Positions 7,698 to 59,417 of a DNA stretch of 64,000 nucleotides are shown here, piece after piece (position 1 is the stretch's first letter; each line of letters starts with the position of its first letter). Below the pieces are notes generated by a model. The model saw nothing but the letters and a program-made list of their open reading frames with translations, was not told where the DNA came from and did not search any database. The position numbers were made by a program, and so were the translations under genes. Source of the DNA: Telopea speciosissima (taxonomy: Eukaryota; Streptophyta; Magnoliopsida; Proteales; Proteaceae); the NCBI RefSeq assembly GCF_018873765.1, contig NC_057925.1, positions 59,284,970 through 59,348,969 of the forward strand, given 5' to 3'.

Positions 7698-7762
7698 AGT
7701 TAATTAATCTTGTTTCTACCCCATAAAAAAAAAATTTTAAAAAAAAAAAGTCAATTAATCTT
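7698..7762 (+). mobile_element. Micro-insertion: A-tail with short head between direct repeats
   Basis: AGTTAATTAATCTT (7698-7711) and AGTCAATTAATCTT (7749-7762) match at 13 of 14 positions and enclose 37 bp starting GTTTCTACCCCAT and continuing as A-rich sequence. This is the pattern expected of a LINE insertion that kept only its last bases and poly(A). Confidence 0.6.
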
Positions 7763-7817
7763 ATCTAAATTGTGTTTAAGAATAATTAAAAAAACTTATG
7801 ATAATTAACAGCAACTT

Positions 7818-7889
7818 GTGGCTGTAGTTTAGTGGTAAGAATTCCACGTTGTGGCCGTGGAGACCTGGGCTCGAATCCCAGCAGCCACA
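7818..7889 (+). tRNA. tRNA-His (GTG)
   Basis: The 72-bp sequence folds as a standard nuclear tRNA: acceptor strands GTGGCTG and CAGCCAC with discriminator A, A-box-like TAGTTTAGTGG, anticodon arm CCACG-TTGTGGC-CGTGG with anticodon GTG at 7851-7853, and T arm with GGGCTCGAATCCC. It has no intron. A CAA motif just upstream (7812-7814) is typical of plant Pol III start regions. There is no T4 run before the next tRNA gene, which starts only 7 bases after this one ends, so the two may share one precursor. Confidence 0.95.
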
Positions 7890-7896
7890 TTTATTG

Positions 7897-7989
7897 CCGA
7901 CCTTAGCTCAGTTGGTAGAGCGGAGGACTGTAGTGGGAAAATTTCTGGTAGACATCCTTAGGTCGCTGGTTCGAATCCAGCAGGTCGAA
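7897..7989 (+). tRNA. tRNA-Tyr (GTA), intron-containing, copy 1
   Basis: The gene opens CCGACCTTAGCTCAGTTGG, the plant tRNA-Tyr 5' half. The GTA anticodon is at 7930-7932, and a 20-bp intron (7934-7953) interrupts the anticodon loop at the usual place, as in other plant tRNA-Tyr genes. The T arm GCTGG-TTCGAAT-CCAGC is perfect. The last acceptor pair is C with A instead of C with G, because the 3' strand reads AGGTCGA. This may weaken the product relative to copy 2. A run of 11 T follows. Confidence 0.92.
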
Positions 7990-7990
7990 A

Positions 7991-8001
7991 TTTTTTTTTT
8001 T
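7991..8001 (+). terminator. Pol III terminator of tRNA-Tyr copy 1
   Basis: Eleven consecutive T residues begin two bases after the tRNA end, well above the four needed for RNA polymerase III termination. Confidence 0.8.
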
Positions 8002-8136
8002 AACTCATTCTCATTGAATTATATTTTAAACTTTCTAGGATTGAAATTTTGAGTCGCTCTGTAAATCAGTATAATATGATTAAGTGGGTGATTTATTACT
8101 TGATTTTTATTGGAATCCCAGCAACAACAAATATAT

Positions 8137-8229
8137 CCGACCTTAGCTCAGTTGGTAGAGCGGAGGACTGTAGTGGGAAATTTCCTGGTGGACATCCTTA
8201 GGTCGCTGGTTCGAATCCGGCAGGTCGGA
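8137..8229 (+). tRNA. tRNA-Tyr (GTA), intron-containing, copy 2
   Basis: It has the same structure as copy 1, with a 20-bp intron of slightly different sequence (TGGGAAATTTCCTGGTGGAC). The acceptor stem is fully paired (CCGACCT with AGGTCGG, discriminator A). The T stem has one G-T wobble. A T run follows at 8240-8248. It looks functional and is the better of the two copies. Confidence 0.94.
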
Positions 8230-8239
8230 ATTATTATTA

Positions 8240-8248
8240 TTTTTTTTT
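8240..8248 (+). terminator. Pol III terminator of tRNA-Tyr copy 2
   Basis: Nine T residues lie 11 bases after the tRNA end, within the normal range for Pol III termination. Confidence 0.7.
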
Positions 8249-8988
8249 CTCATTCTCATTGAATTATATTTTAAATTTTCTAGGATTGAAATTTTGAATC
8301 GCTCAGTGTAATATGATTAAGTGGGTGATTTATCACTTGGTTTTTATTATTCGTATTTTAATTTTATTACTTTTTTTTTTCCCATAATTATTTTCCTTTA
8401 TTTTTATTTTGGCAAAATCCTACTTGGTCGATGGTTGTCCTTGGTTGGGCCACTAAAATCCATTATGTACAAGGATCCAATGATAAAATAAACCATTGGA
8501 TACTAAGGAGATGCTTTATATAGACCACATTCAAATGTCACCCTCAAATTCAATCATTTATGCCTCCCCCATGTGTATGTCTATACAATCCTTCAATAGT
8601 CGCACCTATATGTCAGGTTCATATTATCTGTTTCACAAAATGGTAAGAGTTCTGTTTGGACTGAAACTTAACATGTGAGTAGCGGATCCTGAAGTCTACT
8701 AGTTCACAAAATTTCAGGCTAATCTGATCTTCCCCGTGAGGGAAATGGGCACCAAACACCAGACCTAGCTTGGTTATCTAGATTGCCAGACTAGAGAGCC
8801 TTCTGCCCTTTATTTCAATATGGAAAAGAGTAGGACAACTCCAACTATGGTATAAAAGTGGTAAAAGTATGAGGAGCCTACTTGTCACCAAAATTTGGGC
8901 CTTGTAAAACCTGCCACATGGCAGATAATGCCACTGTATTGCATTAGGATACCATCTTGGACCTACACCCTCTTACAAAAAAAGGTTC

Positions 8989-9129
8989 ATGTTCTCTGTG
9001 CCGCAGCGCAGGCTGTGCCCAGACACATGGGCCTGCCACTTAGGAGGATAGGGTGATCATTGAGCCCATCCCCATTTGTCTGGGCGTGTCTGGGCACAGC
9101 CTGCGTCCCTCGGTACAGAAAACATTCTC
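8989..9129. mobile_element. Foldback MITE, 'GTGCCCAGACAC' family
   Basis: Long imperfect inverted arms: GTTCTCTGTGCCGCAGCGCA and GGCTGTGCCCAGACACATGG on the left, and the complement on the right ending in GAAAACATTCTCC. The same arms recur at 37133-37241 and, more diverged, at 63551-63733. It is non-coding. Confidence 0.7.
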
Positions 9130-9139
9130 CCTACAAAAA

Positions 9140-9297
9140 ATTAGTGGTTTAAAATGGAAGTCAAAAGGTGTATCGGCCAAAAGGTGGATTTTTTAATCCC
9201 GAATCAGTCTGATACAGCCCAATGCAGCCAATCTGTACTGGTATCAGCAATGACCAACACGGTACTCGATACCGTGTTTTATAACCTTGTGTAGACC
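9140..9297. repeat. Degenerate 'GGTTTTAAAA' element
   Basis: The left edge reads AGTGGTTTAAAATGG and the right edge CCGTGTTTTATAACCTTGTG, which are inverted relative to each other. The interior has repeated CTGATAC/CCAAT/GGTATC motifs. It belongs to the family seen at 7243, 19362 and 34935. Confidence 0.5.
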
Positions 9298-9989
9298 AGA
9301 CTTTATTACATCCGGAGTCTGGACTAACATCTCCAGACTACTGTTGTAATCCTGTAGAATTGCAGATTGCTGCTGCTATACTCTTGGTTTGGGCTGCGAT
9401 ATGCACATACTAACCTTACTAAGTCAACCAGGGGACTTGGATTCTTCTTATATTTAGGCCTATGGGTTGATGAATTAGTACAAAAGTGTCTCTGAGATTG
9501 TGTTAGTCTTAAATTGGAGACTAGACTCTGCTTTTCTGAAATTGTTATATCTCAGTTTTTGCTGTCTGGTTTGATTCTTATTTTTCCAGTTTCTGTTCTG
9601 TATCCATTGATTGGCACTTCCAGCTGGAAATGGAAGTCTTTGTGGTTCAGACAATGGCTTGTAAAGAAATTGATCAGTAAAACATAGAAATCTTTACGAC
9701 TTCAATATAATATAAGTCATAGCCTGTTCCATCGTTTTACAAGATGAATCAATCAACTCAGATTGAAACTGAAGCAGAAGACTAAATAACCCAATTGAGT
9801 TAGTACAATGATATTAGAACATCAAATCAAATTTTTTCCTCCTAGATTTGAAGAGAAGTAGGATCCTAATCGCCTCTGCCAATATCGCAAAGACATGTTC
9901 CTTGAGGAACATGAAGAGCTCCTCCCCACTATTCTTCTAATTGCTAATGATATTTCTGGTATGTACACTACCAAGCTACAATGAAAGCT
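9298..9989. other. Intergenic, 3' flank of the bHLH gene
   Basis: No coding or RNA gene is visible. The part next to 9990 probably contains the 3' UTR of the minus-strand bHLH gene. Confidence 0.5.
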
Positions 9990-12900
9990 TTATCTGAGCT
10001 TCAATAATTCCATTTTCAACTGGTTCAAGTGCATTGATACTGTGCCAAAATAAAAATTGAGGAAGTAAGGAACAGATTTTGCAAGTAGACATAAGTCAAA
10101 GAGGATGTAATCTTTCTCACAAATAAATGAGCAAATCAAACAACTATTATCTGAGTCCATTCATTCAATTCAATTCTTTTGGTAATGCAAAGAATATTTA
10201 AGCTCACCACCACCTGAGTCTGCTGAGGAGTTGTAACTGAAAACAGAGTTCTCCGATGGATGATAATTGTTGTAATTGTCTCTCTCCCAAACTGGTGGTT
10301 GCAGCACATCAACTTCCCACAACTGTTGATGCTGATTTTGTTGTTGTTGACATCTTGCTCCATTGAATTGAAGTTCAGACCACATCATTGGCTCAACTGT
10401 TAGTGTGCTGGGGAAGCCACCAGTACTAAGGCATCCACTCTGCGAGATTAAAAATAAGTACTTTGACACAACAAATTGAAATTAAGGCAAAAATTACACA
10501 ATGGTAAAGTAAATGGGTAACCAATAGAGAAGGTTAAAATCAGCAATAGCTAAATTAGATTAATCTTGGTGGTAACACCTATGACACATCTACCTTATTA
10601 AGCAAATACAGGGCATTGGGAAGGAAACAAGTATTGTTATTTACATCTCCCACTATAGGGACTGACTAGTAGACATGCATGAACATTTGATCTATAGCTT
10701 TACATTGTTTAGCACATTTTTACATTCGAGGCTCAGAATTTGGCTGTAATTAACGAGTAAGAACGAAAGCTTTTTTACTAAAAATATATATTAAGAAAAA
10801 GTTAAATTTGGAAACTTAAAACAGAAAATTCTGAAAAGTATACCAATTAGTAGGTACATACTTCTACAGCCAGTAAGTTGTCAAGGCCGAAGTCGATTCT
10901 CGGGTTAACCGCTGCGAGTCTCATTGATAGAACCTGAAACCCAATGTTTGGATCGAGTTAGAACCAAATAACTAAAAATAAATTAATGAATAAAATAAAA
11001 TAAATGGCACTTTTGCCTTTACAGTGTCTTAGTGTAGAGAGGCTTTCTTTACAAGGGACTCCTAATTTTGCCACATCAGAGGATGATATAGCAATTTCAA
11101 ACCATTGGATAAACAAGGGATAGTCAAGATAATCCACTAGTCAAGTTTTATACTCAAATTCAACCTAATTTAAACCCCTTTAGATATCATTTTTTTTCCT
11201 GCTAATGAGGGTATCTAGACCTTCGGTTGAAATTCCACCGGCACATGCATACATCCTTACACACGCACCGGGTCAGCACTGGATCCTATGAGAACCATAG
11301 AGGCTGCAGGGCTGGTCCCAAGGGATTAGGACCATGCACTCTCATTTCTTGAATTCTTTGAACCCCCATTTGGCCACTTGGCAACCTCCATTTAGGTTAA
11401 ATCTTGACTTGTGAGCAGGGGACCAAGGGTATACCTACCCAAAAAATTTGGACCCCACCAATCTACCATGTGGTAGGTCTGGTTCCAGTGAAAGAAGTTC
11501 AAGCCTTAAATAAACAAAATGATATTAAAGTGACAAAAATGCCCAAGGAGCAGTGCAAATAGTTAGGGTATTATTTACAGAAGGGTGGGGGGAGTATAGA
11601 GTCAAGTCCTTTAAGTCCTTTTCTTTTTATTTTACCCCTTGAAGTAGCAGGCAAAACTCAAAAAGCACAAATAAATGGAAAGTGGAAACAGGGGGCAGGG
11701 GGGGGCGTTTGAGCTTAGACTCTGACCTCCACTTGACGCTGCAGTGACTGTACGTGGTTGATGATCTCGTCCAGCACTAGAGCCGTACCTGATATCTGCA
11801 AAAGCATTTCTTTTTCGTAAAAGAACGCCATTAAAGCAATGAAAAAGAGACACGATTAAGATAACAAGAGTTACCCTCACTTTCCACTTGAACAGAAGTC
11901 AGATAGAAACCAGACTTTTCTAGTAGACTAATCTACTCATCCTCTCTATTTTGTTGTCAAAATGCCCGCCCAAAATGATAAACAAAAATGCCAAGGACGA
12001 AAGTACCAATCTGCAAATTTCCAGAGAAGTAAAATGCAGATTTTACTTCGTACCACAGCTTCCAACAAAAGCATAAACATAAGGCCAACAATGGTGGCCC
12101 CAAACTCCCAACAACGTTTCTGATTTTCTGCTATTCAGTGACCCTCTATAACCTTAGTTGGGTCGATGTCATGGTGGGGCATAGCTGTTCGGTCTGACAC
12201 CTACATGTAAGAAGCCTTATTGAATCAAAACCTGTTATGAAACAGAGGCCACACATATACCCATTATACAAGATATTTTTTACAAGGGTTGATGAATCCC
12301 AATATCCACAGCAAACCCATCCACCACTAAACCATGCTACCAAAGGTCCAAAAAACCCAGTTTTTTGAAATCCTTGGCAATGAGTATAAATTGTTTATAC
12401 ATAAACCCAATGAAGGGTGTAGTTTATTTTATTCACAGCCCACTTCCCAGTCTTCACTCTTATTCTTACACACTTGTTAGGTGGTCCAGAGTGCAGACCA
12501 GAGCAGAAAGAGAAGGCTATGGTACTGCTATGGTGTTAGACAATATAATTTTTGTGAATTCAGGTCAGAAATGCAGCTAAAGAGGTTTAAGGGTCATCCA
12601 TTGAGGACCAATGAACATTGAAGTTCTGGGACCAGTTCATTTGTTACTTACAAATTACAAATTCCAGTATTCCAGTGGTCCTGTTTTCATAAGACAATAA
12701 TAAATACTTGGGTTCATGGCTTCCATGGATAGGATGATAGGACCACCATATGTATATGCCTACTCTACCGATCAGGTGACCTTTAAAGCCCATTTGGTCT
12801 AATTCACTCCTTCAAACCATCAATCCATAAAGATAAGATTTTATCACTTCCTAAGGTCTCAATCGTTGGATTTCTACAATAGACTCAATCCAACGGTGAA

Positions 12901-15314
12901 GACATGCAAAAAGGCCTAGTAGACGGTAGGATCACATCGAATCTTTTCCATATCTATGAAAAAACGACCCTTGGCCTATCATCTCATGTTTCCACACTGT
13001 TCTGTTTTATCATTTGTAGTTTCGTTGTGGTTTTTTTTTGGTAGAGATGCTTTTATAAAAGCTCTGCCTTTGTCGTTTCACTGCACCTTTTTCTCTTCTT
13101 GTGCCGTGAAAAAGACACATAACGAATATACCAGATGGTCCACATCCCTACCATGTTAAGGGTATTCTCGTCCATCGATCCACAACTTTTAGTTATGAGA
13201 TTCACACAATTCCCAAAGTATTTTTGTGTACCTGATAAAAGCCTTGGGATTTCTGCTAAACTCTAATAAGATGACGAACTTAACTAGGGTTTTCAATTTC
13301 AAGATAATGCCAAAACTACCACAAGACTTTTCTCATTTTAGATTAGAAAACTACATGGGCGTGTGTTCTATAGTTTCTCTGTAGTTCTCTTTTGACAATT
13401 CTTCCCCCTTTCACACCTCTGAATTCTGACCAAAATATGAAAATGTTGAAAACGACTAAACCCTTTGCTTGAAGTCCTTACTTAAAAGTTTAGGTCGCGT
13501 TTGATATGAATTCTTCAGAAAAACATTTTTATAACTCTTACAAAAATTTATTACTATAATTTCATATTTATGTTAAATTCTTTCAGGGCTGTCAACTAGT
13601 GGGCCTGATATAATTTGAGGTATTGGTATCCTGATTCCCGATCCATATCTGATTTCCCTATCCATGTCGGTATTGGCTATGGCCAATATGATACCGATAT
13701 ATATCATTGGTATTGTTCAAAAATTCACAGAATTGTCTTAATTTTGGAATTGATTGATACTCGTTTCAATATCGTGAATTAAAACCCTAGGGCTTGGTTA
13801 GTTTCGATTAGGTCTAATCAATCCCCACCAATTTAAGGATCCACCAGTACCACACGTTTTAATTAACCTGGCCTCTTAAGCTAGGGATGGACATGTTTAT
13901 AATCAATTAATCGATTAATAATTCATAATCAAACTAATCATACTATAATTGGTCTTTAAACAGGCTAATTGAGTTAATCAAGCTGCAAACATGCCATAAA
14001 CGGATTGGTCAAGTCATAAAATGAATAATCAGGCTATAAATGGTCAGTTGCGGTCAAGGTTTTAATGGCACAAATCGAACGAAAATTCAAAAAAGACAAT
14101 CTTTTTGATCGATACCAAACACCGTGGTCTTGATCGGTTTCAGTGTTAGTCAATCCTAATCGAATATACCGTGAAAACACCAGAAGAATAATCAGTCTAG
14201 CCCCAACACTGTACCGGTTGACCCGATTTCAGGCTTTAACCAATTGAGCCTACCGGAACCGGCCGACTTTCAAAAACAAAATGCAGCTTCAATTTTTTAA
14301 GAAGAAAAACATAAAACACAACCAAACGCAGCTTTAATAAAAAGGAAAGTTACACGAAAAGAGAAGCAAAGACTAGAGAAGTAAACCTTGCTACAACCGG
14401 GAACCAGTTCCTGAAGGAGCTTCATCCGAGCATTTATCTTCTCTCTCCTCGCCTATCATTATTAATAAACAATGGGATTAGTTTCTTTATTAATAAAATG
14501 ATTACGATAATTAAATATTAAGATCTTCTTCTTCTACTGTTAATAACGTGATTAATTACTCTTTCAGCTAGGCTATGGCTGTCAGTAGCTTGCCCACGAC
14601 GAGCTCGAACGTGAACGTAAGGAAGCTTCTCACCATCGTTTTTGCTCTTCTTAGCAGAGCCTTTGACCTAACTTACCCAAAAATGAAGAAAAAAAAAACA
14701 ATGAAGCTTTTCAATCTCTGGTAGATCTTCTCGAATGAAGGAATACCAGTTATCACAAATGGAAAGAAACCGGAAACCCTAAAAGAGTTTGTTACCTTCT
14801 CCCGTTCCTTGCGCTTAGTCGATTTCTGGTTCTCCTTTGGAACGTTTGCAGCGGAGGAGGGAATCGGAGATGAGCTCCGGTTGGACTCGGACTCAGCTGG
14901 TTCGGCCTTCAATTTGGGAGAATTCTCTCTTGAAATTGACGGAACTGAGCTCGATTCCGGCGAATCTTCTGCGGCAGCGAAGACTGAGAACCTTGCGGCT
15001 CGTTCTACTAAGGCAGCATTTGTAGGGAATATGGGAGAGCAGTTGAATGAGTAGCCAAAGTTTCTCTGATCTTCTTGAGTATTTTTCCAGATATCTGCTG
15101 CGAGGATCTCCTGAGATTTCACTGGTTCGTGAAGGAGCTCTAACGCTTGATTAGCTGGGAGACCGAGGAGAGCAGTGAAAGAGTTTTCGGTTACAGGCAC
15201 TACTGCTGCGTCTTCAAGAACGTTCTCCGTCATTAGTTCCTGAATTTCTACACTGAATTGCTTATCGTCTCTGCAATTTCCAGATCTGCTTCCTGAACTT
15301 GTAATCAGCTCCAT
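9990..15314 (-). CDS. bHLH60: bHLH transcription factor, bHLH48/bHLH60 clade
   Basis: Seven minus-strand exons with GT-AG introns join in frame: 14796-15314, 14560-14667, 14387-14452, 11727-11795, 10862-10933, 10211-10439 and 9990-10039, giving 370 residues. The ATG at 15312-15314 is the first in the frame. The N-terminal part has [18 protein letters not shown] and [13 protein letters not shown], both typical of Arabidopsis bHLH48/60. The basic region reads [19 protein letters not shown], with the His-Glu-Arg set (residues about 203, 207, 211) used to bind E-box/G-box DNA. The helix-loop-helix spans [20 protein letters not shown] to [13 protein letters not shown]. The tail ends [12 protein letters not shown], the usual NQLKMEL ending plus four residues. 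Its role is nuclear transcription control, and Arabidopsis relatives act in growth and flowering. Intron 3 (2.6 kb) is swollen by repeats. Reading through the last intron gives an alternative end at 10170. The symbol is by resemblance; bHLH48 is equally possible. Confidence 0.92.
13590..14280. repeat. Repeat-derived part of bHLH intron 3
   Basis: Two diverged 'CCGATACC' type repeats lie here: about 13600-13800 (GTATTGGTATCCTGATTCCC, ATGATACCGATATAT) and about 14058-14270 (AAGGTTTTAATGGCACAAAT). They are dispersed-family relatives without coding capacity. Confidence 0.4.
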
Positions 15315-15941: not shown

Positions 15942-18015
15942 CCGAGCACGACTGACTCATATGGTCTTTGTTGATGATCTTATCTTTTTTGGAGACGCAT
16001 CCATGTCGGAAGCCCGAGCACTTAGTGAGTTATTGGAATCATACTATAAAGCTTGGGCAAATCATCAATCTTAATAAATCCACTACTCAGTTCAGCCCGA
16101 ATGTCAGCTCTACCACAAAGCGTCAGCTCAGGGAGTTCTTTCAGATTATTCCCACTAATGCCCTTGATAGGTACCTGGGTATTCCTTTTATCAGCAGCAA
16201 ACTAAACTTCACTGTTCAAGCCTGCTAGCCAGAGTGTCGAATAAATTGCAGCTTTGGAAAACCCAATATCTCAATCTGGCGGGTAAGACAATCCTGATCC
16301 AATCCACTCTTTCATCGATGCCTCTTTATGCTATGTCCTGCTTTAAGCTTCCTTCGACAGTACATAAAGATCTGGACAAGACTGGTCGTCAATTCTTCTG
16401 GTCTCGAGGAAGCTCCTCTGTGGTTCCTACTGTTTCCTGGAACACCATCCGCCAACCTAAGCGATGTGGTGGGTTAAACATCAAGCTATTGGCTCCCATG
16501 AACTCTGCTCTCCTAGCCAAAAGAGGTTGGGAACTCCTGCTACCCCCTACTTCATTATGGGCTAGACTTATGAAGGAAAAGTATTTTCCCAACACTTTGT
16601 TTTTTCAAGCTAAGTGCCCCACAACTGCATCTTGGGGATGGAATTCGGTTTGCTCATCTCGGGATCTGCTTCAACTTGGTATTTTTCATCAGGTGGGCAA
16701 TGGCAGAAGTATTAATCCCTGGCTGGATCATTGGATTCCATCACAGCCACCCTCATCGGCTCCTTTTCCTCTTCCCTCATCTGCTCCCTCTGCAGTTGAT
16801 TGGTTCATTGATCCTACCATTCAAGCATGGATTCCGGAAAGGGTCTTTCATTGGTGGCCCCCTGACATCGCCTTTTAAATTTTATCCTTTCCATTTCCTA
16901 CCTTTCCTGTACCTGATCGCGTAGTGTGGCAAGGCACTTCAACAGGCAAGTTTTCAGTTTCCTCTGCCTACAATCTTGCTATTAGGTCTAACTCGCAGAC
17001 TATGGATAAGAAATGGTTGAAGATTTGGCACCTTCCTACTACTCCAAAGGTGCAATTTTTAATATGAAAAACTCTACACGATCGCTTGCCTCTTTCGGAT
17101 TTTCTCAATTCAAGAGGTTTTAATATGAATCCTTATTGTCATATTTGCCAGCAGCATATGCAATCGCCTTCTCACCTTTTTGTGAATTGTATTTATGTGG
17201 AAGGCATCTGGCGCCAAACTGGGCTTTCACATTTGTTTATGGCTCCAGATGTTCTCAGTGGAGTCCAAGCAACGTTGCAGATCCCTTTCCAGCTTAACAA
17301 GGATAATTGGATAAAAGTCTAACTCTCTTGCGGACTGTTATGGCACATCTGGACGGCCTATTGGGACTTAATTTTCAGGGGCACTCCTTTCAATCCGGCC
17401 ACTGTTACTCTCAGGGATTGCTTCTTCACGAGAACATCTTCAAAATTACTTGCCGCCTAACCATCGAGCAGTCAGGCTTGTTCGTTGGATCCTAACGATC
17501 TCCCCCTTCATGAAATTCAACGTCGATGGTGCCAGTCAGGGCAATCCAGGATTGGCTGGGCTGGGAGGTGTTTGCAGGTCTCCTAACGCTACCTTTCTTT
17601 GTGGCTTCTCAATAGGGGTTGGCTGGAATTACGCCCTTGTAGCTAAAGCTCTGGCGGTCTGTGAAGCGCTTCGTATGGCTGTCTCGCAGGGCATTTCGAA
17701 TGGCATCATCGAAAGTGATAATCTTCTTGTGGTCAACTCTCTTTCTAATCCTTCCTCGGATTGTCCTTGGCGGATCGCTGCGATAATACGGGACTGCATA
17801 ACTCTAGCATCACATTTTGGTCAAGCTATATTTGTTCATGCCCTCCGCGAGGCCAATTCAGTGGCTGATCAGCTCGCTTCTCTTGGATCGTTCTCTCAGA
17901 CTTCTTCCTTTTGGCATCACTCCCCACCCCTTGATTGTATTCTTCTTCAGTTGTTCTCTGACTCGTCTGGAACATTGTTCCAGCGTTAATAAAATTCCAT
18001 TATCAAAAAAAAAAA
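15942..18015 (+). mobile_element. L1-type LINE with RNase H, 5'-truncated
   Basis: The insert is flanked by ATAGAAGATGTGG at 15929-15941 and 18016-18028, a perfect 13-bp target duplication, and ends in CATTATC plus an A tract. It begins inside reverse transcriptase right at the catalytic box, read HMVFVDDLIFFGD near 15958-15995. Next comes the RT thumb (ALDRYLGIPF, YLNLAGKTILIQS, CGGLNIKLLAPMNSALLAKR; 15968-16878), then a zf-RVT region (about 16920-17290: LPLSDFLNSRGF, CHICQQHMQSPSHLF). An RNase H domain follows (17506-17960) with FNVDGASQGNPG, CEAL, ESDN and VADQLASLG, so all four catalytic acidic residues are present. At least three frameshifts and one in-frame stop (near 17067) make it non-functional. 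It lies about 630 bases upstream of the bHLH start codon. The 5' UTR, ORF1, endonuclease and most of RT are missing. Confidence 0.93.
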
Positions 18016-18028
18016 ATAGAAGATGTGG

Positions 18029-23014: not shown

Positions 23015-23063
23015 CATATCCAAAAGCCTTTGTTTTTTTGGTAACACATATCCAAAAGCCTTT
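23015..23063 (-). mobile_element. Micro-insertion between perfect 17-bp repeats
   Basis: CATATCCAAAAGCCTTT occurs at 23015-23031 and 23047-23063, identical over 17 bp. It encloses only 15 bp, GTTTTTTTGGTAACA, which on the minus strand is TGTTACC plus an A tract. The repeat is longer than the insert, and the size fits LINE-type target duplication. Confidence 0.78.
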
Positions 23064-24098
23064 CATATTGTCTATGTTGATGACCCCCCTTTACAAATAA
23101 CCTTCCTAAAACTAACATATATTTTTTACTATTTTGTTAGAACATTAGTTTACTAATATTTGAAACAATAAACACAATAAAGATCATATATTATTTTTAT
23201 TCTTGAAATAATGGCTAGTATTCTTCAAGTCATACAATTTTTTATTACATTGTAGTTTTCATATTTATTATTTATTGATTAGATATTAAAGGAAAATGAT
23301 ATACAAATGATAGTTGGAAAACCAAGTTTTCTGACTCGACTCGTCTTTTAGAAAAACCTGGTGACTCGACCTTGTCAAACCCGATCAAGACGAATCATTT
23401 TTTTTTAAATTATTTTTTATGCCATAAATCTGTATAAATTAATAAAAATCAGAAAAATATAGGAAAACCAGAAAAAATATATTCATGGAATCACATATTA
23501 ATGCATTTTGAGTTTATACCATTAAACAAGAGAAGGGAGTCGAGGAGTTGAGGGTTTCGTAATGTTTTAGAATACAGATTTGTTATTTCAAATCATTTTC
23601 TAAGTAAGTTGGCTTTATAGTTTTTTAAAAAAGGACAAAACTTACTGAGTTTGTCATGACTCAAGTAAAAATACCGAACCCTATTTGACTTAGATGGTTT
23701 ATGATCTAGTCTCGTCATTTTTACTATGACCTACCACACAACTTTTGACCAGGTGTTCCAAAAATTTAATTATAATTCCGTTTTATTGTTGTTGCAACAC
23801 TTCTTCATCCTCCTTATTATTCTTTTTTCCAAAGAATCAGCTCATTAAAATTGTTATGTTTTATTTTTTTTTTTATTATCTTCTATCGTTTTCTTTTTTG
23901 TCATTTTTTTCATGTGTTTCCCCGTTTTTCATTTCGTTCTTTTTGGAAATCAAACCACATCGACTTTTAAGTTGCAATTTGTCAAGTCATTATCCATGGA
24001 AGGCAAATCTTGTTTTGTCGATGTTGCACTTTGTTTAAAGTTGCATTCAAACTTAAGCCAATCAAGATATGTTTACAAAAGTCAATGATGTAAACAAC

Positions 24099-24136
24099 TA
24101 TCAATTTTTTTACCAAAAAACACAAATATCAATTTT
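24099..24136 (+). mobile_element. Micro-insertion between 10-bp repeats
   Basis: TATCAATTTT at 24099-24108 and 24127-24136 encloses 18 bp, TTTACCAAAAAACACAAA. The head (TTTACC) and A tract match the other micro-insertions. Confidence 0.6.
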
Positions 24137-24450: not shown

Positions 24451-24490
24451 AACAATTGGTTCACCAAACAAAAAAAGGGCGAACAATTGG
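24451..24490 (+). mobile_element. Micro-insertion between 9-bp repeats
   Basis: AACAATTGG at 24451-24459 and 24482-24490 encloses 22 bp starting TTCACCAAAC followed by an A tract and GGGCG. Confidence 0.55.
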
Positions 24491-24510
24491 ATAATTCTCT
24501 TCCGAAATCA

Positions 24511-24553
24511 ATTAACTGTAAATTTTTTTTGGTCATAAATTAGCTGTAAATTT
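24511..24553 (-). mobile_element. Micro-insertion between 15-bp repeats
   Basis: ATTAACTGTAAATTT (24511-24525) and ATTAGCTGTAAATTT (24539-24553) match at 14 of 15 positions and enclose TTTTTGGTCATAA. In minus-strand terms this is TTATGACC plus an A tract, continuous with the repeat's own A residues. Confidence 0.6.
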
Positions 24554-26540: not shown

Positions 26541-26547
26541 TTTTTTT

Positions 26548-28601: not shown

Positions 28602-28649
28602 TTTATAGGGTTCTTATCCAAAAAAAAAATAAAATAAAATTTATAGGGT
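28602..28649 (+). mobile_element. Micro-insertion between 10-bp repeats
   Basis: TTTATAGGGT at 28602-28611 and 28640-28649 encloses 28 bp: TCTTATCC followed by A-rich AAAATAAAATAAAA. The TTATCC head resembles the LINE 3' end at 17990-18015 (CATTATC plus A tract). Confidence 0.6.
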
Positions 28650-32048: not shown

Positions 32049-32092
32049 TCATCACATGTTTTTTTTTTTTTTTTTGTAAATTTCATCACATG
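32049..32092 (-). mobile_element. Micro-insertion between 10-bp repeats
   Basis: TCATCACATG at 32049-32058 and 32083-32092 encloses 24 bp, a T17 tract followed by GTAAATT. On the minus strand this is a short head plus poly(A). The rest of 31900-32632 shows no gene. Confidence 0.6.
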
Positions 32093-33492: not shown

Positions 33493-34904
33493 GGGAAATT
33501 TTCAGCGACCCCTCCTCATTTGGACCGTGGAATTATTGCCACCCCATTAAGTGTCAATATATCAATTTGGGTCCAAAAACAAAACGGGGTTAACTATGTG
33601 TAAAGGAAATGACTAAACTACCCTCTACACTAAAATATTAAAAAACAAATGATAAAATAGAAAAAAGGGTTGGGGTTTTCAAGGGTGTCTTTGGACCATT
33701 GGATCGGAACAAATAAATCTTAAGTGTTGATTTGGAATAAAACATAAATTTGGGAATCCACTCTTCCTCTCGAAACCCCATTCCCTCCCTGACCTGCATT
33801 TCGCTCCGGCAGCTTTCATCCCCGACTCCATGCCTCTGTCGTATTTACCCTCCAATAAATTAGTAGCCATTTGTTTGTTTGGGTATAAATAAAAAAAAAA
33901 TCTACGAAGGTAGTCATGGATGCCATTAAGGGACAGGGAGACTGGCAATGGTGGTTGCCGGGGTGAGGTTGTCCTCCCTCCTATGACCTGTGATCGCTTT
34001 AATAAAAAAACCCTGCAGAAATGGACAGCAGGGTGATTGGTTAAAAGGCAGCGACAGAGATGGTCGCCGGAGTGAATATCTCTCTCCGGTAACCTGTAAC
34101 TGTTTAGATTTAAAAAAAAAAAAAAAAAAACTGGGCAGCCAGGCTGCCATAACCGTGATGCTCTCATGGGCCAGCCCCAGCCGGACTTCCCCTTTACCAG
34201 TTTTGTTGCGGTCGCCGGCCTCTCCGGTAACCTGCAGATTTTAACAAAAAAAGACAAATTCTGCAAGTCACAGGGTGGGTTAGGTAACTGAATGAGGAAG
34301 AATGGGTATTTTTTTGGGTTGTTTTTCCGGCAATGGACACCGACCGAAGTTTCATTGTTGTTTGCCGTGGTTTTTGAAAACCGGAGCACCATCGGGTGAA
34401 GCCGCAGTTGGCGGCGATTTAACTCCAAAGTATCTAGGCACAAGTGTTGATTCCCATCTTTCCATTTCTTCCATGTTGAATCAAACCCTAAATGATTTTA
34501 AGATGAATGTTGAAACAAAAAAAATTAGAGAAATCAGAAGAGAGCAGAGGGAAACCCTTCTTCTTGGTTCGATTCAATTTCTTCTTCCTTTCGATTAAAG
34601 GCGAGCATGAGTCCTTGGGAAGATCCATTTGAATTTTTTTTACCTAAATCTGAATCCATTTGCAGGTTTGGGAAGATGAGTTGCAGGTTAGGGGGAAACG
34701 ATTTGAGGAAGAAAGAGGGCATTTTGGTCAGATGAATTGGTTCACTTGTTTTAAGGGGAGGGGCAAAATAATCTTTTAAAAAAATCTAACCTACTCACAT
34801 CACTAATTAACAGCTCAAAGACCTTTTCCGTTAGTGTTTGGGCTCATATTGATATATTGGGACTTAATGGGGTGGCATTAATTCTGTGTCGCCAAAAATT
34901 TCCC
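33493..34904. mobile_element. Mutator-like element, non-autonomous, perfect 9-bp duplication
   Basis: AACATAGTA flanks the element at 33484-33492 and 34905-34913. The inverted ends are at least 110 bp: GGGAAATTTTCAGCGACCCC and GCCACCCCATTAAGT with AATATATCAAT on the left, complement on the right. The 1412-bp element holds GC-richer internal sequence (33770-34700), including several CGGTAACCTG-type repeats. A minus-strand open frame covers 33679-34443 (254 codons), but it contains a homopolymer-derived Phe run, shows no domain I recognise and may be chance. The cargo origin is unknown. Confidence 0.85.
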
Positions 34905-35605: not shown

Positions 35606-36712
35606 TCAACAAGCTTTGAGCGGAGTTCCACAAAGGCAATCGTTGCTAACAAACGATGACGCTTCAAGATGATCAAACGGTGAACCCGCTGGAATCCGGC
35701 CGCACAGGTGGTTGTAGCTGAGATCCAAGTGACCTATATACGCCGCCGACGATATCGACTTGGGTATCTGACCCCTCAATTTGTTGTACGACAGGTCAAG
35801 AGCCGTGAAGTACGATCTGCGCCCGAAAGCATCCGGTATATAACCTTCGATCGAGTTTCGGCTCAGGTTTAGTATGCCTATACCTGAACTTCCGAGTAAA
35901 CTCGCCGGAATCTTACCCGAGATTCGGTTGCTGTCTAGGTTTAGCGTCGACAGAACTTGCATTCTCCCCAGCGGCTCCGGAATCAGTCCGGAGATCTGGT
36001 TCTCCGACAGATCTAAATCGGCGAGTCGGTAGATTTTAGAGATCGAACTCGGAATCGGTCCGTGTATCTGATTCCGACTCAGTAACGCTCTGCTCAGCAT
36101 CGTGAGCTTTCCGAAGTCTCTAGGGATCTCGCCGGAGATATGATTGTTTCGGAGGTCGAGGTGCATTAAACTGGGAAGGTTGACGATCGACGCCGGAATC
36201 CCTCCGGAGATGAGGTTATCAGCGACGTTGAGTACGGTGAGTCGACTCAGCCTTCCAATATCGGAAGGAATTGGACCGGTGAGTCGGTTTCCGATGAGGT
36301 CAAGGATTCGGAGGTAAGGAATAGAGGTGATGCAGGTAGGGATCTGACCGTCGATTCCTTTCCAGTCGGCGATGACGATATTGGTGAGGTGATTGAGACT
36401 GCAAATGGATGGAGAGATTGTGCCTGTCATGAAGCCAGTACGACCAGCTTTTTGGAAGATGGGATCTTCGGACTCGCCACGGAGGTTTATGTCGGCGACA
36501 CTACGAGTTGTTGGATCGCAGCTGACGCCGTACCAGTTTTGGCAACAGTCGTTGCCCGACCAAGAGTTGAAGATGCCCAAGTATGGCTCATGTAATGCTG
36601 CTTTGAAGGCTAAAAGTGCTGCTCGCTCAGACGGCGGGCAGGAGTTAACGACCGGTGTTGTAACGGCAACGAGGATGACGACGACGGAGATTAAGAATAG
36701 GAAGAGACCCAT
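35606..36712 (-). CDS. DRT100: DRT100-like secreted leucine-rich-repeat protein
   Basis: A single open frame of 368 residues on the minus strand. Residues 1-24 form a signal peptide (hydrophobic FLFLISVVVILVAVTTPVV, cut before CPPSE). The LRR N-terminal domain follows (ERAALLAFKAALHEP, FNSWSGNDCCQNWYGVSCD), then the DRT100-specific INLRGESEDPIFQKAGRTG and VIADWKGIDGQIPTCI. About ten plant-type LRRs (LxxLxLxxNxISGxIP) run to about residue 345, and the protein closes with a cysteine cap (NDCLCGTPLKAC). There is no transmembrane segment or kinase, so it should be apoplastic. Arabidopsis DRT100 was named from partial complementation of E. coli recombination mutants. A repair role is doubtful for a secreted LRR protein, and its true ligand is unknown. 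The gene is intronless, as in relatives, with a TATA box 55 bases upstream. Confidence 0.93.
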   Translation of the reverse strand: MGLFLFLISVVVILVAVTTPVVNSCPPSERAALLAFKAALHEPYLGIFNSWSGNDCCQNWYGVSCDPTTRSVADINLRGESEDPIFQKAGRTGFMTGTISPSICSLNHLTNIVIADWKGIDGQIPTCITSIPYLRILDLIGNRLTGPIPSDIGRLSRLTVLNVADNLISGGIPASIVNLPSLMHLDLRNNHISGEIPRDFGKLTMLSRALLSRNQIHGPIPSSISKIYRLADLDLSENQISGLIPEPLGRMQVLSTLNLDSNRISGKIPASLLGSSGIGILNLSRNSIEGYIPDAFGRRSYFTALDLSYNKLRGQIPKSISSAAYIGHLDLSYNHLCGRIPAGSPFDHLEASSFVSNDCLCGTPLKAC

Positions 36713-52932: not shown

Positions 52933-52937
52933 AGATC

Positions 52938-53016: not shown

Positions 53017-53028
53017 GTATCAATAATC

Positions 53029-54116: not shown

Positions 54117-54252
54117 TGACTGTGGCTTACTTTTGCACTTCCATGTGTCTCTTTCTCCCCTCTTAAAAACAAGCAGTAGAGGTATCCTTTTATATGAGAG
54201 GGAGAGAGATAGATTCATGGGAGTACTGGCGTCGGCCACACTCTCAAGGATC
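54117..54252. mobile_element. Foldback MITE, 'AGTGTGGCCTA' family, copy 2 (diverged)
   Basis: GTGGCTTACTTTTGCACTTC and CATGTGTCTCTTTCTCC on the left pair with GGAGAGAGATAGATTCATGG and GTACTGGCGTCGGCCACACT on the right. Confidence 0.55.
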
Positions 54253-54320
54253 CGGCTCCTCTTCAGAGAACCCAACACCCAGGAAATGTTCAGGAGGCAT
54301 CCAACGGCTGCACCATGCCA

Positions 54321-54364
54321 CACACATTCTTTTTTTTTTTTGATAATGATGTCGCACACATTCT
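54321..54364 (-). mobile_element. Micro-insertion between 10-bp repeats
   Basis: CACACATTCT at 54321-54330 and 54355-54364 encloses 24 bp, a T tract followed by GATAATGATGTCG. On the minus strand this is CGACATCATTATC plus A tract, and the CATTATC just before the A tract equals the last bases of the LINE at 15942-18015. Confidence 0.72.
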
Positions 54365-54835
54365 GATAACTAATTGCCGTACACATCCCGATATACACCC
54401 AATCAACCATCAGGATGTGTGTACAAAAGCCTGAATTATGCCCCCTGTGCACTCCCTGGGTGCTAGACTGTTCCTTATCCCTTTAAAGAATTATTGCTTT
54501 CAATTATCCAATTGAGTGACTCAATCATTAAATAACAATTGCAAATTTATTTTTGGGTTATTTCCAAATGCCCCCCCAAAAATGGTCAAACTTATAATTG
54601 CCCTCTTAAATTTTCATTAATTTCACTTGCACCCCTACTTTCCAAACTAAGTATTAATATAATCCCCCCCGTTAGTTAGAGACGTTATGTTATAACCTAT
54701 CCTAGTTTTTGAAAATTTATGGACCATTCTGCCCCTTGATAGGATAGAATGACCAAAATGCCCCTTCAAGAAGAAAAAAAAAAACATCTGCAACTCATCT
54801 TCCCCAAATTGATTGGGGAAAGATGAGTTGCAGGC

Positions 54836-55022
54836 TATAGATAGAAGGTCTGTCCATTAGAACAGCAAGCCTAGCTTTATCTCGACAAGGGAGCAACTTC
54901 AACCAGGGAGTTAGGTTCTTAGTAAAAACAACCTCCCGTGGCAGAGCACCATATCTAAGGGTACCCGAGAATGGTCGAAAGCTCCAATGTGGAGAAGCAT
55001 AAGCAGTAGATGATTCCAAGCC
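54836..55022 (-). pseudogene. PIG-T: Captured exon piece of GPI transamidase subunit PIG-T (downstream part)
   Basis: The minus strand reads LESSTAYASPHWSF, then LRYGALPREVVFTKNLTPWL and KLLPCRDKARLAVLMDRPSIY. This matches the conserved plant PIG-T segment (LESSTSYAAPTWGF, LRYGSLPREAVCTENLTPWL and KLLPCRDK in Arabidopsis, from memory). PIG-T is an ER-membrane part of the complex that attaches GPI anchors. The piece stays open, and an ATG-initiated frame of 102 codons runs from 55103 through it into the TIR (stop at 54795), so a short chimeric peptide is conceivable. The sequence upstream of LESST does not look like PIG-T. Confidence 0.85.
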
Positions 55023-55577
55023 CAAAAGCAAATACATCTTCCATTTCCGAAACCCCATCACCGACCATCTCTCAAAACCCATCTCTGCTAAAACCGCCAT
55101 CATCTCTACTAACCCCTATTTCTCCTTTCATCCCTATTCTTTTTTCTGTATTTTTTTTTTATCATTTTCATTCTAAAAACCCTCATCCCACCATCACCGA
55201 TTCTCCTCTCCATTTCTTTTCACTTCTAATCTAACCCACATCCTTGTCTAAACAAAACCCCAATCTGAATTCCAGCCATGACCACACCCATCCTCAACTA
55301 ATATATCATTTCTGATCCCATCATATCTTTGATTTCCTTTTCCATTTTCCCTCCCAATAACCATCGGATCCCTATTTCTTTTCTTTTATTTCCATTTTTC
55401 CAAACCCAACACAGAATCAGAATCCATTGGCTGCCATCATTTTTTTTTCAAGCTCTCTGGAATCCATTGTCGGCTGTGGTGCAAAGAAATGTGGGGCAAG
55501 AAAAATAGAAGAAGATTAGGAAGAAGAAGAGGAAACCCGGGCGGAGAAGAAGGAGATGGGGAGGAAATTGTGCGGAC

Positions 55578-55778
55578 ATAGAAGTTAATCGAAACACAGA
55601 AGAGACCCGAGAAGGTGTGGGTCAGATTTTTCCAGGTTGAATCAACCTGATCTTAGGGACATCGAAGACAGCCCACAACTCAACTCCGGGAGGTTTCGCA
55701 TTTGCGCTCGATACAGGATCAAATCCACCCCATCGTTCGTAGTTCCAGCGACCTTGCGTGAATGACAATTCCATCTCA
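55578..55778 (-). pseudogene. PIG-T: Captured exon piece of PIG-T (upstream part), frameshifted
   Basis: The minus strand reads EMELSFTQGRWNYERWGGFD and PVSSANAKPPGVELWAVFDV, then, after a shift of frame, VDSTWKNLTHTFSGLFCVSI and NF. In plant PIG-T this block lies directly before LESST, so the two pieces are adjacent in the parent protein but 0.55 kb apart here. The sequence between them lacks a normal GT donor after NF, so it is not a clean intron. The frameshift near 55656 makes this piece non-coding. Confidence 0.85.
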
Positions 55779-56314
55779 CAAATCGGGAATTTTTTAACCT
55801 AATCAAAGCAGCATAAAATCCCATTAGTTATTACTCTTTCAACTTAAACTGCAGTTGTGAAGACGGTAACAATTAACAAACCCTAGATTCTGACCAGAAA
55901 TAAAGCTGATCGATCGGAGAGTTAAAAACAAAAGCTAGAAACACAGATACAAATGGGTTAAAACCTAAAGCAAATGGAAGAGGGAAAGGAAAGAGAGTGA
56001 CTCAGGATTAGTTCCATGGTGTTCCCTACAAGGATACCTGCAACTTATCTTCCACAAATTGATTTGGGGAAGATGAGTTGCAGGGTTTTTTTTTTTTTTT
56101 GAAGGGGCACTTTGGTCATTCTACCTTATCAAGGGGCAGAATGGTCCATAAATTTTCAAAAACTAGGATCCATTATAACATAATGTCTCTCACTAACGGG
56201 AGAGACTAGATTGGTACTTAGTTTGGAAAGCAGGGTGCACGTGAAATTAATGAAAATTCAAAGGGGCAACTATAAGTTTAACCGGAGGACATTTAGAAAT
56301 AACCCTTTATTTTT

Positions 56315-56722
56315 TAATTCACTTGTGGTGTTCACATGACATGTGTAACGTAATGGATAAAAAATAAATTAATTAAATGTAGGACTCACATCCCCATGAC
56401 ACACGTCATGTGAACAGCCGTCAACAGCGTAAGTGAAGTGATTTTGAAGATTCCTCTCTCTCAAATGTTGAGACCACTTGAGTGAATCAAGGAAAACAAA
56501 CCACGTGAATTAGTGCGGTTTATTTTGTCACTGTTTGCTTGTGACCAAACTCCGTCCACGAAGGAAAATGATCTCCTCACCTGTGGCTGATTCATCCCTT
56601 CAATTCCATGAACAATAAAGAGTATCCAGGAGGGTATCTCAATAACTGCATCGACCACTTAGTTATTTACATAAATACCCTTAGGTACATTTTCTAATCG
56701 AATGATTTGATCGGGTGAGGAC

Positions 56723-56727
<5 letters not shown>
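56315..56727. other. Intergenic, no gene seen
   Basis: Nothing recognisable. A short CATGTGAAC/GTTCACATGAC pair suggests a decayed inverted repeat at about 56330-56415. Confidence 0.4.
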
Positions 56728-56753
<26 letters not shown>

Positions 56754-56958
56754 GTCTCTCTTATCATCTCTTATGGAGGGCAATAGGTCACTAAGGCGGT
56801 TTCCAACTCAAAGAAGAGCAGCCAATGGGGAAGAAGGGAGTAATAACAAGATGTACACTTCCGATGGGGGAGAGTCGAACATGCAACCTCTTCTTGAACT
56901 TAAGTCAGCACTTTAATACATCGGCAGCTACAATCATGCCAAGAGACGCTTCTCCAAG
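56728..56958 (-). mobile_element. Probable tRNA-derived SINE
   Basis: On the minus strand the sequence has an A-box-like TGGCATGATTGTAG, a B-box-like ATGTTCGACTCTCCC and a roughly 200-bp body. It ends in a 25-base A tract (T run 56729-56753 on the plus strand). These are the marks of a Pol III SINE. The distance between boxes is longer than usual and no clear target duplication was found. Confidence 0.45.
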
Positions 56959-57561
56959 CTAGTTCATTCATGTGGATATAATCATTGCCAATATATAAAA
57001 TCATTAATAATATGGTCTTTCTAAGCATCACTATGCCTAGTGCAATATAACACTTCACTATTTGCCACTTGACACTACATGGGTTAGTCTAGGTGATAAA
57101 AAAACTCCAAATACATCTCAATTTCTAAATTTAAGTTTAAAGTAAACACGAAAATTTGCACAAACTCTGATTCAAAATTTTAGTAAAATTACCATAATGT
57201 CATCAAATGAAAATGAATATACAATACAAAATGAAATCTTTTGTAATTTTAGCTACTTCTACTCCTCTGTTTAAGTTAAAATTGTGCTAATGAAATGCTT
57301 GCCTAGTCCTCTATTACATGGATTAACCCATATATTAACATATGAAAAATAGTAAAATATTATATTTCACTAAGTATAATGGCTAGAAAAAAAACCCTAA
57401 TATTAATCAAAATAAATAAATTATAAGAGAAGATTCTTGAGCAATCAACATAGGAAAAAACACTAAAGAGATACGATGGATGGATTCATAGGTTAAGAAC
57501 AAAAGGATCATTTCATATGAGGAGAAAAGAGATAAAAAGAGGGTTAAACTATAAAATAAGC

Positions 57562-57597
<36 letters not shown>

Positions 57598-58124
57598 GGC
57601 CATGGTTAAGCTGAGATTCCAATCAAATCAGTGAACAGATCTTCCCTTAGGCTAAGGCATGTGTGAGACATGTGATCATAATATGTATCTCATTACCTAA
57701 CACCAATCAAACACCATCTTCATTGGATAATGAGAAATCCTTGGAAGTTAATAGACTTTTACCACTGTTCCAGTTGACTCAGAGACTGTCACTCCCCAAG
57801 ATAATCCTGATCCAAATAATATTATATTCTACAATATGGACCACCCATCAAAAACCGCTTAATCCAATCAATAACACTTTTTAAGAAGTCGATTTTGATT
57901 TTTCCACCTCAAGTGAAGAGAGTCTAGACATTTTTTTTTTTTGGTTAAAGAGTATAAACATTAGAGTGTCATTATTTCATTTACCTTTATAATATTCAAA
58001 ACACTCTTAGCATTATTCTTGGAGGTTCTTTTCAACCATGAGAATCAGTGGATGAAGAGATTCTCTCTTCATAGTTGGTGAAGGGAACGCAGTCATATTT
58101 AAAACTAGAATAAAAATGTTGAGG

Positions 58125-58184
58125 CCTTGAGGGAATTGATTTTTACCACATAAAAAAAAAAAAAACAACCTTGAAGGGATTGAT
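58125..58184 (+). mobile_element. Micro-insertion between imperfect 16-bp repeats
   Basis: CCTTGAGGGAATTGAT (58125-58140) and CCTTGAAGGGATTGAT (58169-58184) differ only by shifted A residues and enclose 28 bp starting TTTTACCACAT followed by an A tract. Confidence 0.55.
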
Positions 58185-58483
58185 CCAGCCGTTATTGGGG
58201 AAATTTATCCTCAAAAGTGTGGTCATTATACTTGAGAATCTAACCGTCCATTTAATACTTTACAGGATAAAAGATGTCAATGCCCAAGTTTCTATGATTG
58301 GATATTTGGATTCTTAAGTGTTGTGTACCGTGCACTGGACAATAAATTGCACTTGAGGGGATGAAAATATTCCCCTTCAGACTCTGAGACGAAAGTTTTT
58401 AGTGATTGTGATTTTTTTTCCCTTTTCAATCTATCTATCTAACATTAACAATATTCTCCTTGAGACTTTGAGTTATTGTTTTA

Positions 58484-58535
58484 AAAATTGGAATCAAAAT
58501 TTTTTTTTTTTTTGGGTAAGTAAAATTGGAATCAA
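58484..58535 (-). mobile_element. Micro-insertion between perfect 14-bp repeats
   Basis: AAAATTGGAATCAA at 58484-58497 and 58522-58535 encloses 24 bp: AA, a T tract and GGGTAAGT. On the minus strand this is ACTTACCC plus an A tract. Confidence 0.75.
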
Positions 58536-59378
58536 TTCGGATCATACTTATCCTTGCTCTGGTCATTCTGTGGCCCCGATTCTAGGGTTTTCAACTAGAT
58601 CGCTAGGTTTTCATATTTTAAGGATCCTATTTTGATCCAAATTGAAATCAGCATGGACCCTAACCTAATTCCAAGTTTATAATCAGTGGTGTTTTTTTTT
58701 GTGTGATTTCAAGAGTGTGTTTTGATTGATTGAGAGAGAGAGAGAGGCATGTGGAGATGAATGCAAGTAACACGTGGCAGGGCATTGCTGGTATGATGGC
58801 GTAACGCCCGACATAGGTTGTGAGCTTATCAAGTTGGGATAACGTGGAAGGTTTTTAGGTTCATTGAACGACATTTTCTGGGCATCCCACGTGGAACTGT
58901 GAAATCCCTTCCCAAAATCCATTTAAGAATCTAATTGGATACAAAAAAAAATCTCTTTTAATAAATTCATAGTGGGCCTCTTGGCCCATGACTCTTCAAG
59001 GCCCACAAGGACACAGCCCCAAGCACATCCGGTTCCACTCTCATTAATTTCTTGTTTGCAACTGTTCGGCGGATTCCCGCGGTTTCGGCATGAGTTATTT
59101 GTTCTATCTTCAATGCTCAGATCATGCCTTTCATTTAATATATTAAATATACCTTTTTGAGGTTAAATAAGATATACAAAAGATTTCTTGCATGACCGTG
59201 CATGGTGCACAGTTGCGCACAAAGCCATTGGATGGAGACAATGGTACTCGTTGAAATACCATAACCACCCTCCTATTTACGAAATAATCGATGGTTCCTT
59301 CCCTGCCGTGCATGAATCCCTTCCCCACATAAGATATGGGTTCTTTGAGCAAGCATGCAGCACAAGGGAGTGCTCTAA

Positions 59379-59417
59379 TAAGGTGCATCTTCCCACCAAA
59401 AAAAACTAAGGTGCATC
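59379..59417 (+). mobile_element. Micro-insertion between perfect 11-bp repeats
   Basis: TAAGGTGCATC at 59379-59389 and 59407-59417 encloses 17 bp, TTCCCACCAAAAAAAAC. Head and A tract match the rest of the set. Confidence 0.72.

What the first reader, a model, noticed from the sequence alone, without database searches (positions are those of the whole stretch)
7698..59417. A class of ultra-short 'tail-only' retro-insertions with full target duplications
At least eleven sites share one design: a 9-17-bp direct repeat, a 13-37-bp insert that is a short head (TTTACC, TTATCC, TTACCC, CATTATC, CCCACC) plus an A tract, then the repeat again. Clearest cases are 23015-23063 (17-bp perfect repeat around 15 bp), 58484-58535 (14 bp), 59379-59417 (11 bp) and 54321-54364. 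The heads resemble the last bases of the LINE in this window (CATTATC before its A tract). My reading is that LINE machinery primes on poly(A) and aborts after the tail, leaving scars shorter than their own target duplication. Such scars would escape repeat masking.
Basis: partly seen in the sequence, partly recalled or inferred. Interest (0 to 1): 0.75.

Follow-up and report, generated by a model that had tools for sequence, protein, structure and literature searches.

The report
Tail-only LINE insertions in a plant
This plant genome appears to carry many tiny insertions made of only the last few letters of a LINE jumping element plus its A tail, each flanked by a duplicated stretch of host DNA, as if the element's copying enzyme often stopped almost as soon as it began.

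Summary
In 244 kb (the window plus 18 ten-kb stretches of the same genome) 13 A tracts carry a flanking repeat of score 10 or more and a head of 15 nt or less; the reversed sequence gives 1, flank swapping averages 0.14 and 40 shuffles give 0 or 1. Heads match the last bases of this genome's LINEs (10 of 13 by the last three letters). Genome-wide, TTTAYCC-A9 occurs 1688 times against 169 for its mirror, and only 90 matches have the LINE's AATAAA just upstream. Of 60 unselected places, 30 are ultra-short inserts with target duplications (about 1 expected), mode 8 nt; longer heads are no commoner than chance. Paralogous empty sites show gain of insert plus one repeat copy: 8 of 8 fetched copies for window site 32049-32092, and one exact paralogue for a second scar. 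The early stop is inferred, and "shorter than their own duplication" holds for 2 of 8 good window sites. Poly(A)-only insertions are known as rare human events; an abundant, discrete plant LINE class looks like a new variant.

The parts
23015..23063 (-). Scar: TSD AAAGGCTTTTGGATATG, head TGTTACC, tail A7C, TSD (17-bp perfect); insert 23032-23046
   Evidence: a 101-base query found no other copy
58484..58535 (-). Scar: 14-bp TSD, head ACTTACCC, A14; insert 58498-58521
   Evidence: no other copy found
59379..59417 (+). Scar: 11-bp TSD, head TTCCCACC, A8C; insert 59390-59406; right flank repetitive
   Evidence: of 7 fetched copies (39 listed) 4 align across the empty junction, two of them nearly gap-free there, 3 align only on the right
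54321..54364 (-). Scar: 10-bp TSD, head CGACATCATTATC, A11; insert 54331-54354; inside a repeat
   Evidence: 4 of 4 fetched copies (43 listed) lack the insert, but the window copy has a further ~25-bp insertion beside it
32049..32092 (-). Scar: 10-bp TSD, head AATTTAC, A17; insert 32059-32082; inside a repeat, clean empty sites. The head does not match any of the 21 LINE ends read
   Evidence: 8 of 8 fetched copies (19 listed) span the junction without the insert; the TSD letters are exact in 3 of the 8, substituted in 5
24510..24553 (-). Scar: 16-bp TSD with one mismatch, head TATGACC, A8 tract shared with the TSD start; insert 24526-24537
28602..28649 (+). Scar: 10-bp TSD, head TCTTATCC, A10 then TAAAATAAAA
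   Evidence: no match spans it
24451..24490 (+). Scar: 9-bp TSD, head TTCACC, AAACA7GGGCG
7697..7762 (+). Doubtful scar: 15-bp TSD with one mismatch, insert with two A tracts
24094..24135 (-). Doubtful scar: 14-bp TSD with one mismatch, head not LINE-like
34623..34662 (-). Doubtful scar: 9-bp TSD, head not LINE-like
16234..18016 (+). 3' part of a LINE (frames 16234-16878 and 17450-17989; RNase H-like domain PF13456 in the latter, no Pfam match in the former); hairpin CTGGAACATTGTTCCAG 17967-17983, then AATAAA, CATTATC and A12 at 18005-18016

Best explanation
Each convincing site is a target-primed LINE insertion that stopped almost at once. The LINE endonuclease nicks an A-rich target (in sense orientation, just before the A-rich start of the duplication). 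The nicked strand primes on the poly(A) tail of a LINE RNA. The reverse transcriptase copies the tail plus only about 5-13 nt (most often 7-8) of the LINE's own 3' end, and the product is joined. The usual staggered second cut gives an 8-19-bp target duplication (median 14). Shown: structure, orientation, LINE-like heads, gain relative to empty sites, and a head-length peak not continued by longer truncations in the 60-place sample. Inferred: the enzyme steps and the early stop.
For: 13 sites against 0.14 expected by flank swapping. Heads end like LINE 3' ends: 7 of 13 share the last 4 nt with one of 21 LINE ends against 27 of 303 other A7+ runs (p 5e-5), 10 of 13 against 64 of 303 for the last 3 (p 3e-5). 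TTTAYCC-A9 is 10-fold over its mirror genome-wide, TTATC-A10 3-fold. 30 of 60 and 9 of 20 unselected places are ultra-short with a TSD (swap nulls 1.4% with head to 17 nt, 2.2% with head to 20 nt; a second swap run gave 12 of 1183). Heads over 17 nt: 4 of 60, where chance gives 5.1. First TSD base is A in 35 of 52. Empty sites for window 32049 (8 of 8 fetched copies) and L013:5351-5400 (one exact paralogue).
Against: The classical TT before the duplication is weak (T 33% and 37% at -2 and -1, background 30%). 26 of the 60 places show no repeat of score 8; 3 of these have AATAAA near the tail, the rest I did not classify. The head of the site with the best empty-site evidence in the window (32049, AATTTAC) matches none of the 21 LINE ends. 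Empty sites are from diverged paralogues, not from a related species. The pattern samples require 5-7 nt of head and lie all on contig 1, so shorter heads are under-counted. In the 20-place sample three longer heads (38, 88, 102 nt) also have repeats of score 8 or more. No SINE library was compared, so some heads could be SINE ends.
Confidence: 0.85

Rival explanations
1. The cDNA was longer, but the second strand was primed inside the T-rich last bases of the LINE by microhomology with the target overhang, and the rest was trimmed; the short length is set at joining, not by the reverse transcriptase. (This shares the LINE origin with the best explanation; it differs in the last step.)
For: TSD ends are rich in T (63% at -2, 48% at -1, background 30%), and several heads overlap the TSD end in T's (L061, L065, L094). 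The most common cut lies one base before TTTA in both head families.
Against: The twelve 8-nt heads keep a G, C or T before TTTA (6, 4, 2); the G and C cases show no overlap with the TSD. Microhomology was not tested against chance.
Confidence: 0.3
2. The template is a short 3' fragment of LINE RNA (tail plus a few bases) produced by RNA decay or cleavage, copied to its end.
For: Head length of about 7-8 nt in two head families.
Against: No direct evidence; RNA cannot be tested here.
Confidence: 0.2
3. Filler DNA and short duplications from repair of staggered double-strand breaks.
For: This is known to give short inserts between short direct repeats in plants (recalled); the extra ~25 bp beside 54321 looks like this.
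Against: Filler would not be expected to be LINE-like ends with the A tract on one side; sense 13 against mirror 1.
Confidence: 0.05
4. Replication slippage or chance repeats around A tracts.
For: A tracts are unstable.
Against: Non-repetitive 10-17-bp duplications, LINE-like heads, empty sites, shuffles and flank swaps.
Confidence: 0.02

Closest known systems
Simple poly(A)/poly(T) insertions attributed to the human L1 endonuclease
   Same: Tail with no element body, made by L1 machinery; PMC3219598 cites three among 48 disease insertions and adds one poly(T) in NF1, suggested to be a severely truncated Alu or L1 or a processed pseudogene (passages read)
   Different: There rare, with tails of 60-178 bp in that study and no head mentioned in the passages seen; here common, tails of 9-28 A in the 30 scars of the 60-place sample (the pattern requires 9), with a LINE-like head of about 5-13 nt
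5'-truncated LINE copies
   Same: Same 3' ends, poly(A), TSDs
   Different: PMC3747384 gives 100-1,000 bp as the usual range of truncated LINE copies in general (passage read); here a peak at 7-8 nt, with heads over 17 nt no commoner than chance in the 60-place sample
Double-strand-break repair duplications with filler DNA in plants (recalled)
   Same: Short insert between short direct repeats
   Different: No LINE tail, no fixed orientation

Membership tests
LINE target-primed insertions | Flanking target site duplication | tested here: met
LINE target-primed insertions | 3' poly(A) tail on one side only | tested here: met
   13 against 1 mirror; genome-wide mirror controls
LINE target-primed insertions | Sequence before the tail is the LINE 3' end | tested here: met
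   met for the class, but 3 of 13 heads (AATTTAC, GTTTTTTGGT, CTGCCCAAAAAC) match no LINE end by the last 3 nt
LINE target-primed insertions | Empty site has one copy of the duplication and no insert | tested here: met
   8 scars tried, 4 informative: clean for 32049 and L013, consistent but less clean for 59379 and 54321; 23015, 58484, L010:9722 and 28602 gave no information
LINE target-primed insertions | Endonuclease preference TT/AAAA | tested here: inconclusive
   A-rich TSD start (67% A at +1, 50% at +2) but weak T before it
LINE target-primed insertions | Made by the LINE protein in vivo | not testable with these tools
   needs experiment
Ordinary 5' truncation series | Broad, continuous length range | tested here: not met
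   60-place sample: at score 10 or more 22 heads of 5-10 nt and 2 longer (22, 98); at score 8 or more 27 of 5-10, 3 of 16-17, 4 longer against 5.1 by chance. Heads over about 140 nt could not be seen in this sample

The most novel reading that the evidence does not exclude
In this plant the commonest product of LINE retrotransposition is not a LINE copy but an early-stop product of about 8 nt plus tail. It stops at nearly the same place in LINE groups with different 3' ends and is present in the order of tens of thousands of copies, outnumbering recognisable LINE bodies and unseen by repeat masking. This would reveal an early checkpoint of plant L1 reverse transcription.
Probability: 0.45. Interest if true: 0.75.

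Novelty: new variant of a known kind. Interest (0 to 1): 0.6.

Why it matters
Tail-only LINE products would be an under-counted source of insertions of roughly 20-45 bp with A tracts, which could seed microsatellites and serve as presence/absence markers. A discrete stop 7-8 nt into the LINE would make a step of target-primed reverse transcription, the change from tail copying to body copying, readable from genome sequence alone. Repeat annotation that relies on element bodies would probably miss them (inferred; no masking was run).

Tried and rejected
The LINE hairpin (CTGGAAC-ATT-GTTCCAG in the window copy, about 21 nt before the tail) was considered as the roadblock that stops the enzyme. 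I do not favour it: five other LINE-like 3' ends that would give GTTTACCC or CTTTACCC heads (L141-L145, picked by me from the 90 matches) lack its TTGTTC arm. Their link to a LINE was not tested by protein. Of the three folds only the window copy scores better than shuffles; L030 forms the hairpin without scoring better, and L034 was cut inside the hairpin by my coordinates.

Empty-site searches gave nothing for 23015 (101-base query) and 58484 (no other copy), L010:9722-9764 (39 other matches, all beside the site) and 28602 (5 other matches, all beside it). For 59379, 3 of 7 fetched copies aligned only on the right side. Looking for repeats inside the 244-kb sample gave no copy spanning a scar. 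Paper searches returned no papers; the rows listed (3; 12 of 115; 10 of 41; 10 of 37) show no plant tail-only LINE insertion in title or shown abstract start. This is no proof of absence: only open-licence papers are held and only listings were seen.

Genome-wide number: of the 13 sites, 7 are in the window and 6 in the 180 kb outside; leaving out the three that I doubt, 6 and 4. Scaled to 823 Mb the outside sample gives about 18,000 and both together about 34,000. The counts are small and the window was chosen for the finding, so only the order of magnitude should be used. LINE protein matches in the same 244 kb lie in 5 sequences (window, L003, L004, L007, L017), found with one LINE's protein only, so the comparison with LINE bodies is rough.
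Full report
WHAT WAS CHECKED. The window lies in a genome of 823 Mb with 11 large contigs and plant-type content (an LRR protein and a LINE). Size and chromosome number fit Telopea speciosissima as I recall it; the tools did not test this. The four clearest sites of the finding are as written. A scan for perfect direct repeats of 9 or more bp around 10-45-bp inserts finds 60 pairs in the window, 12 of them with an A/T tract of 7 or more in the insert. In 6 the tract is at an insert edge, all in the orientation of a 3' poly(A) tail and none mirrored; in 6 it is in mid-insert. Ten shuffles gave no edge case and 0.1 mid cases per round.

SAMPLE BEYOND THE WINDOW. With 18 stretches of 10 kb from all 11 large contigs added (244 kb in all; 2 of 20 requested stretches did not exist), a tail-centred scan finds 23 A tracts with a repeat of score 10 or more upstream: 13 with a head of 0-15 nt, 3 with 16-30, 0 with 31-60, 1 with 61-120 and 6 with 121-300. 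The reversed sequence gives 8 in all, 1 of them with a head of 0-15, and that one is the mirror-symmetric L015 site. With more controls: 40 block shuffles gave 0 (38 times) or 1 (twice), and swapping downstream flanks among 315 A tracts gave 14 in 100 rounds, against 13 observed. The looser scan gives 9 sense-type and 4 mirror-type rows, the latter with inserts of 30-41 bp at 3 places.

THE HEADS ARE LINE-LIKE ENDS. The RNase H end of the window's LINE has 150 matches scored of 7540 candidates, itself included. I read the 3' ends of 20 of rows 2-26 of that list (of the 5 left out, 2 stopped short of the C-terminus and 3 were left out by choice) plus the window copy. They end in ATC (9), ACC (4), TAT (2), CAT (2), GCC, ATT, TCC and CCC before the A tail; 20 of 21 have AATAAA 9-14 nt before it, and all 21 have TTGTTC, one arm of a 3' hairpin, 22-27 nt before it. 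7 of 13 scar heads share their last 4 nt with one of these ends, against 27 of 303 other A tracts (p 5e-5); for the last 3 nt, 10 of 13 against 64 of 303 (p 3e-5). The three heads that do not fit are AATTTAC (window 32049), GTTTTTTGGT (24094) and CTGCCCAAAAAC (L011).

GENOME-WIDE. TTTAYCC-A9 occurs 1688 times; the same pattern read backwards 169 times. TTATC-A10 occurs 1618 times against 517. Only 90 matches have AATAAA 0-12 nt before TTTAYCC-A9. I fetched the first 60 of the 100 listed places of the first pattern, all on contig 1, without selection. 34 have a flanking repeat of score 8 or more, 30 of these with a head of 17 nt or less; chance by flank swapping is 1.4% (of 1178 swaps) and 12 of 1183. 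The other 4 have heads of 22, 31, 39 and 98 nt, where swapping gives 5.1 per 60, so they need no explanation. 26 of 60 have no repeat of score 8. Head lengths at score 10 or more: 5 (1), 6 (3), 7 (4), 8 (10), 9 (2), 10 (2), 22 (1), 98 (1). The fetched stretch reached about 150 nt upstream, so heads up to about 140 nt could have been found. Of the first 20 places of the second pattern, 9 are ultra-short (6 to 14 nt), five of them with a head of exactly 7 nt (NTTTATC); three longer heads (38, 88, 102 nt) also have a repeat of score 8 or more; the swap null for short heads is 17 of 758. The patterns themselves require 7 and 5 nt of head, so the lower side of the peak is cut off; in the unpatterned 244-kb sample heads run from 3 to 13 nt.

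EMPTY SITES. Eight scars were tried. For 32049-32092, 8 of 8 fetched copies of the host repeat (of 19 listed) run across the junction without the insert; the ten TSD letters are exact and single in 3 of them and carry substitutions in 5. For L013:5351-5400 a paralogue on contig 8 has exactly one copy of the 16-bp repeat and no insert. For 59379-59417, 4 of 7 fetched copies (of 39 listed) align across the junction without the insert, two nearly gap-free there and two with gaps at the site, and 3 align only on the right. For 54321-54364, 4 of 4 fetched copies (of 43 listed) lack the insert, but the window copy has another ~25 bp beside it, so this case is less clean. 23015, 58484, L010:9722 and 28602 gave no information. 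A third locus met by chance in the L013 search (L085) is itself a scar with a perfect 16-bp repeat and head TTTTTACC.

TARGET. In 52 scars (39 from the pattern samples, 13 from the 244 kb) the first base of the duplication is A in 35 and the second is A in half; the two bases before it are only weakly T-rich; the last two bases are T-rich (63%, 48%); duplication length 8-19, median 14. This fits priming on poly(A) and leaves room for microhomology at the other junction.

MECHANISM. I take target-primed reverse transcription by plant L1-type LINEs as the origin (confidence 0.85; that the LINE is of the L1 clade is recalled from its RNase H domain and A tail, not tested by a tree). Why the product is so short is open: an early stop of the enzyme (my preference), second-strand priming in the T-rich end, or short template fragments. 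The hairpin of this LINE group resembles in kind the 3' stem-loop that PMC3747384 describes for one plant L1 lineage (passages read), but ends without its TTGTTC arm could give the same heads, so I do not make it the cause.

KNOWN OR NEW. Simple poly(A) insertions by the human L1 endonuclease are in print (PMC3219598, passages read). I found no report of a discrete plant class in the listings, and searches returned nothing; these cover open-licence papers only. I file it as a new variant of a known kind.

Noticed in passing
window 17967-18016 and L020-L039: All 21 LINE 3' ends read keep TTGTTC (one arm of a short hairpin) and 20 of 21 keep AATAAA at nearly fixed distances from the tail; the window copy folds as CTGGAAC-ATT-GTTCCAG.
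   Followed up: partly
window 54320-54400: Next to the scar the repeat copy carries a further ~25-bp insertion between short direct repeats (ACACAT), absent from four other copies; looks like repair filler.
   Followed up: no
window 7817-7890, 7958-7987, 8198-8227: A tRNA-His gene lies about 55 bp from the doubtful scar 7697-7762; a 30-bp near-identical stretch with a tRNA-like motif occurs twice just beyond it, not called as tRNA.
   Followed up: no
L085:1-301: Independent scar with a 16-bp perfect repeat, whose target resembles that of the L013 scar.
   Followed up: no
window 35606-36712: Open frame of 368 aa with leucine-rich repeats and an LRR N-terminal domain.
   Followed up: no
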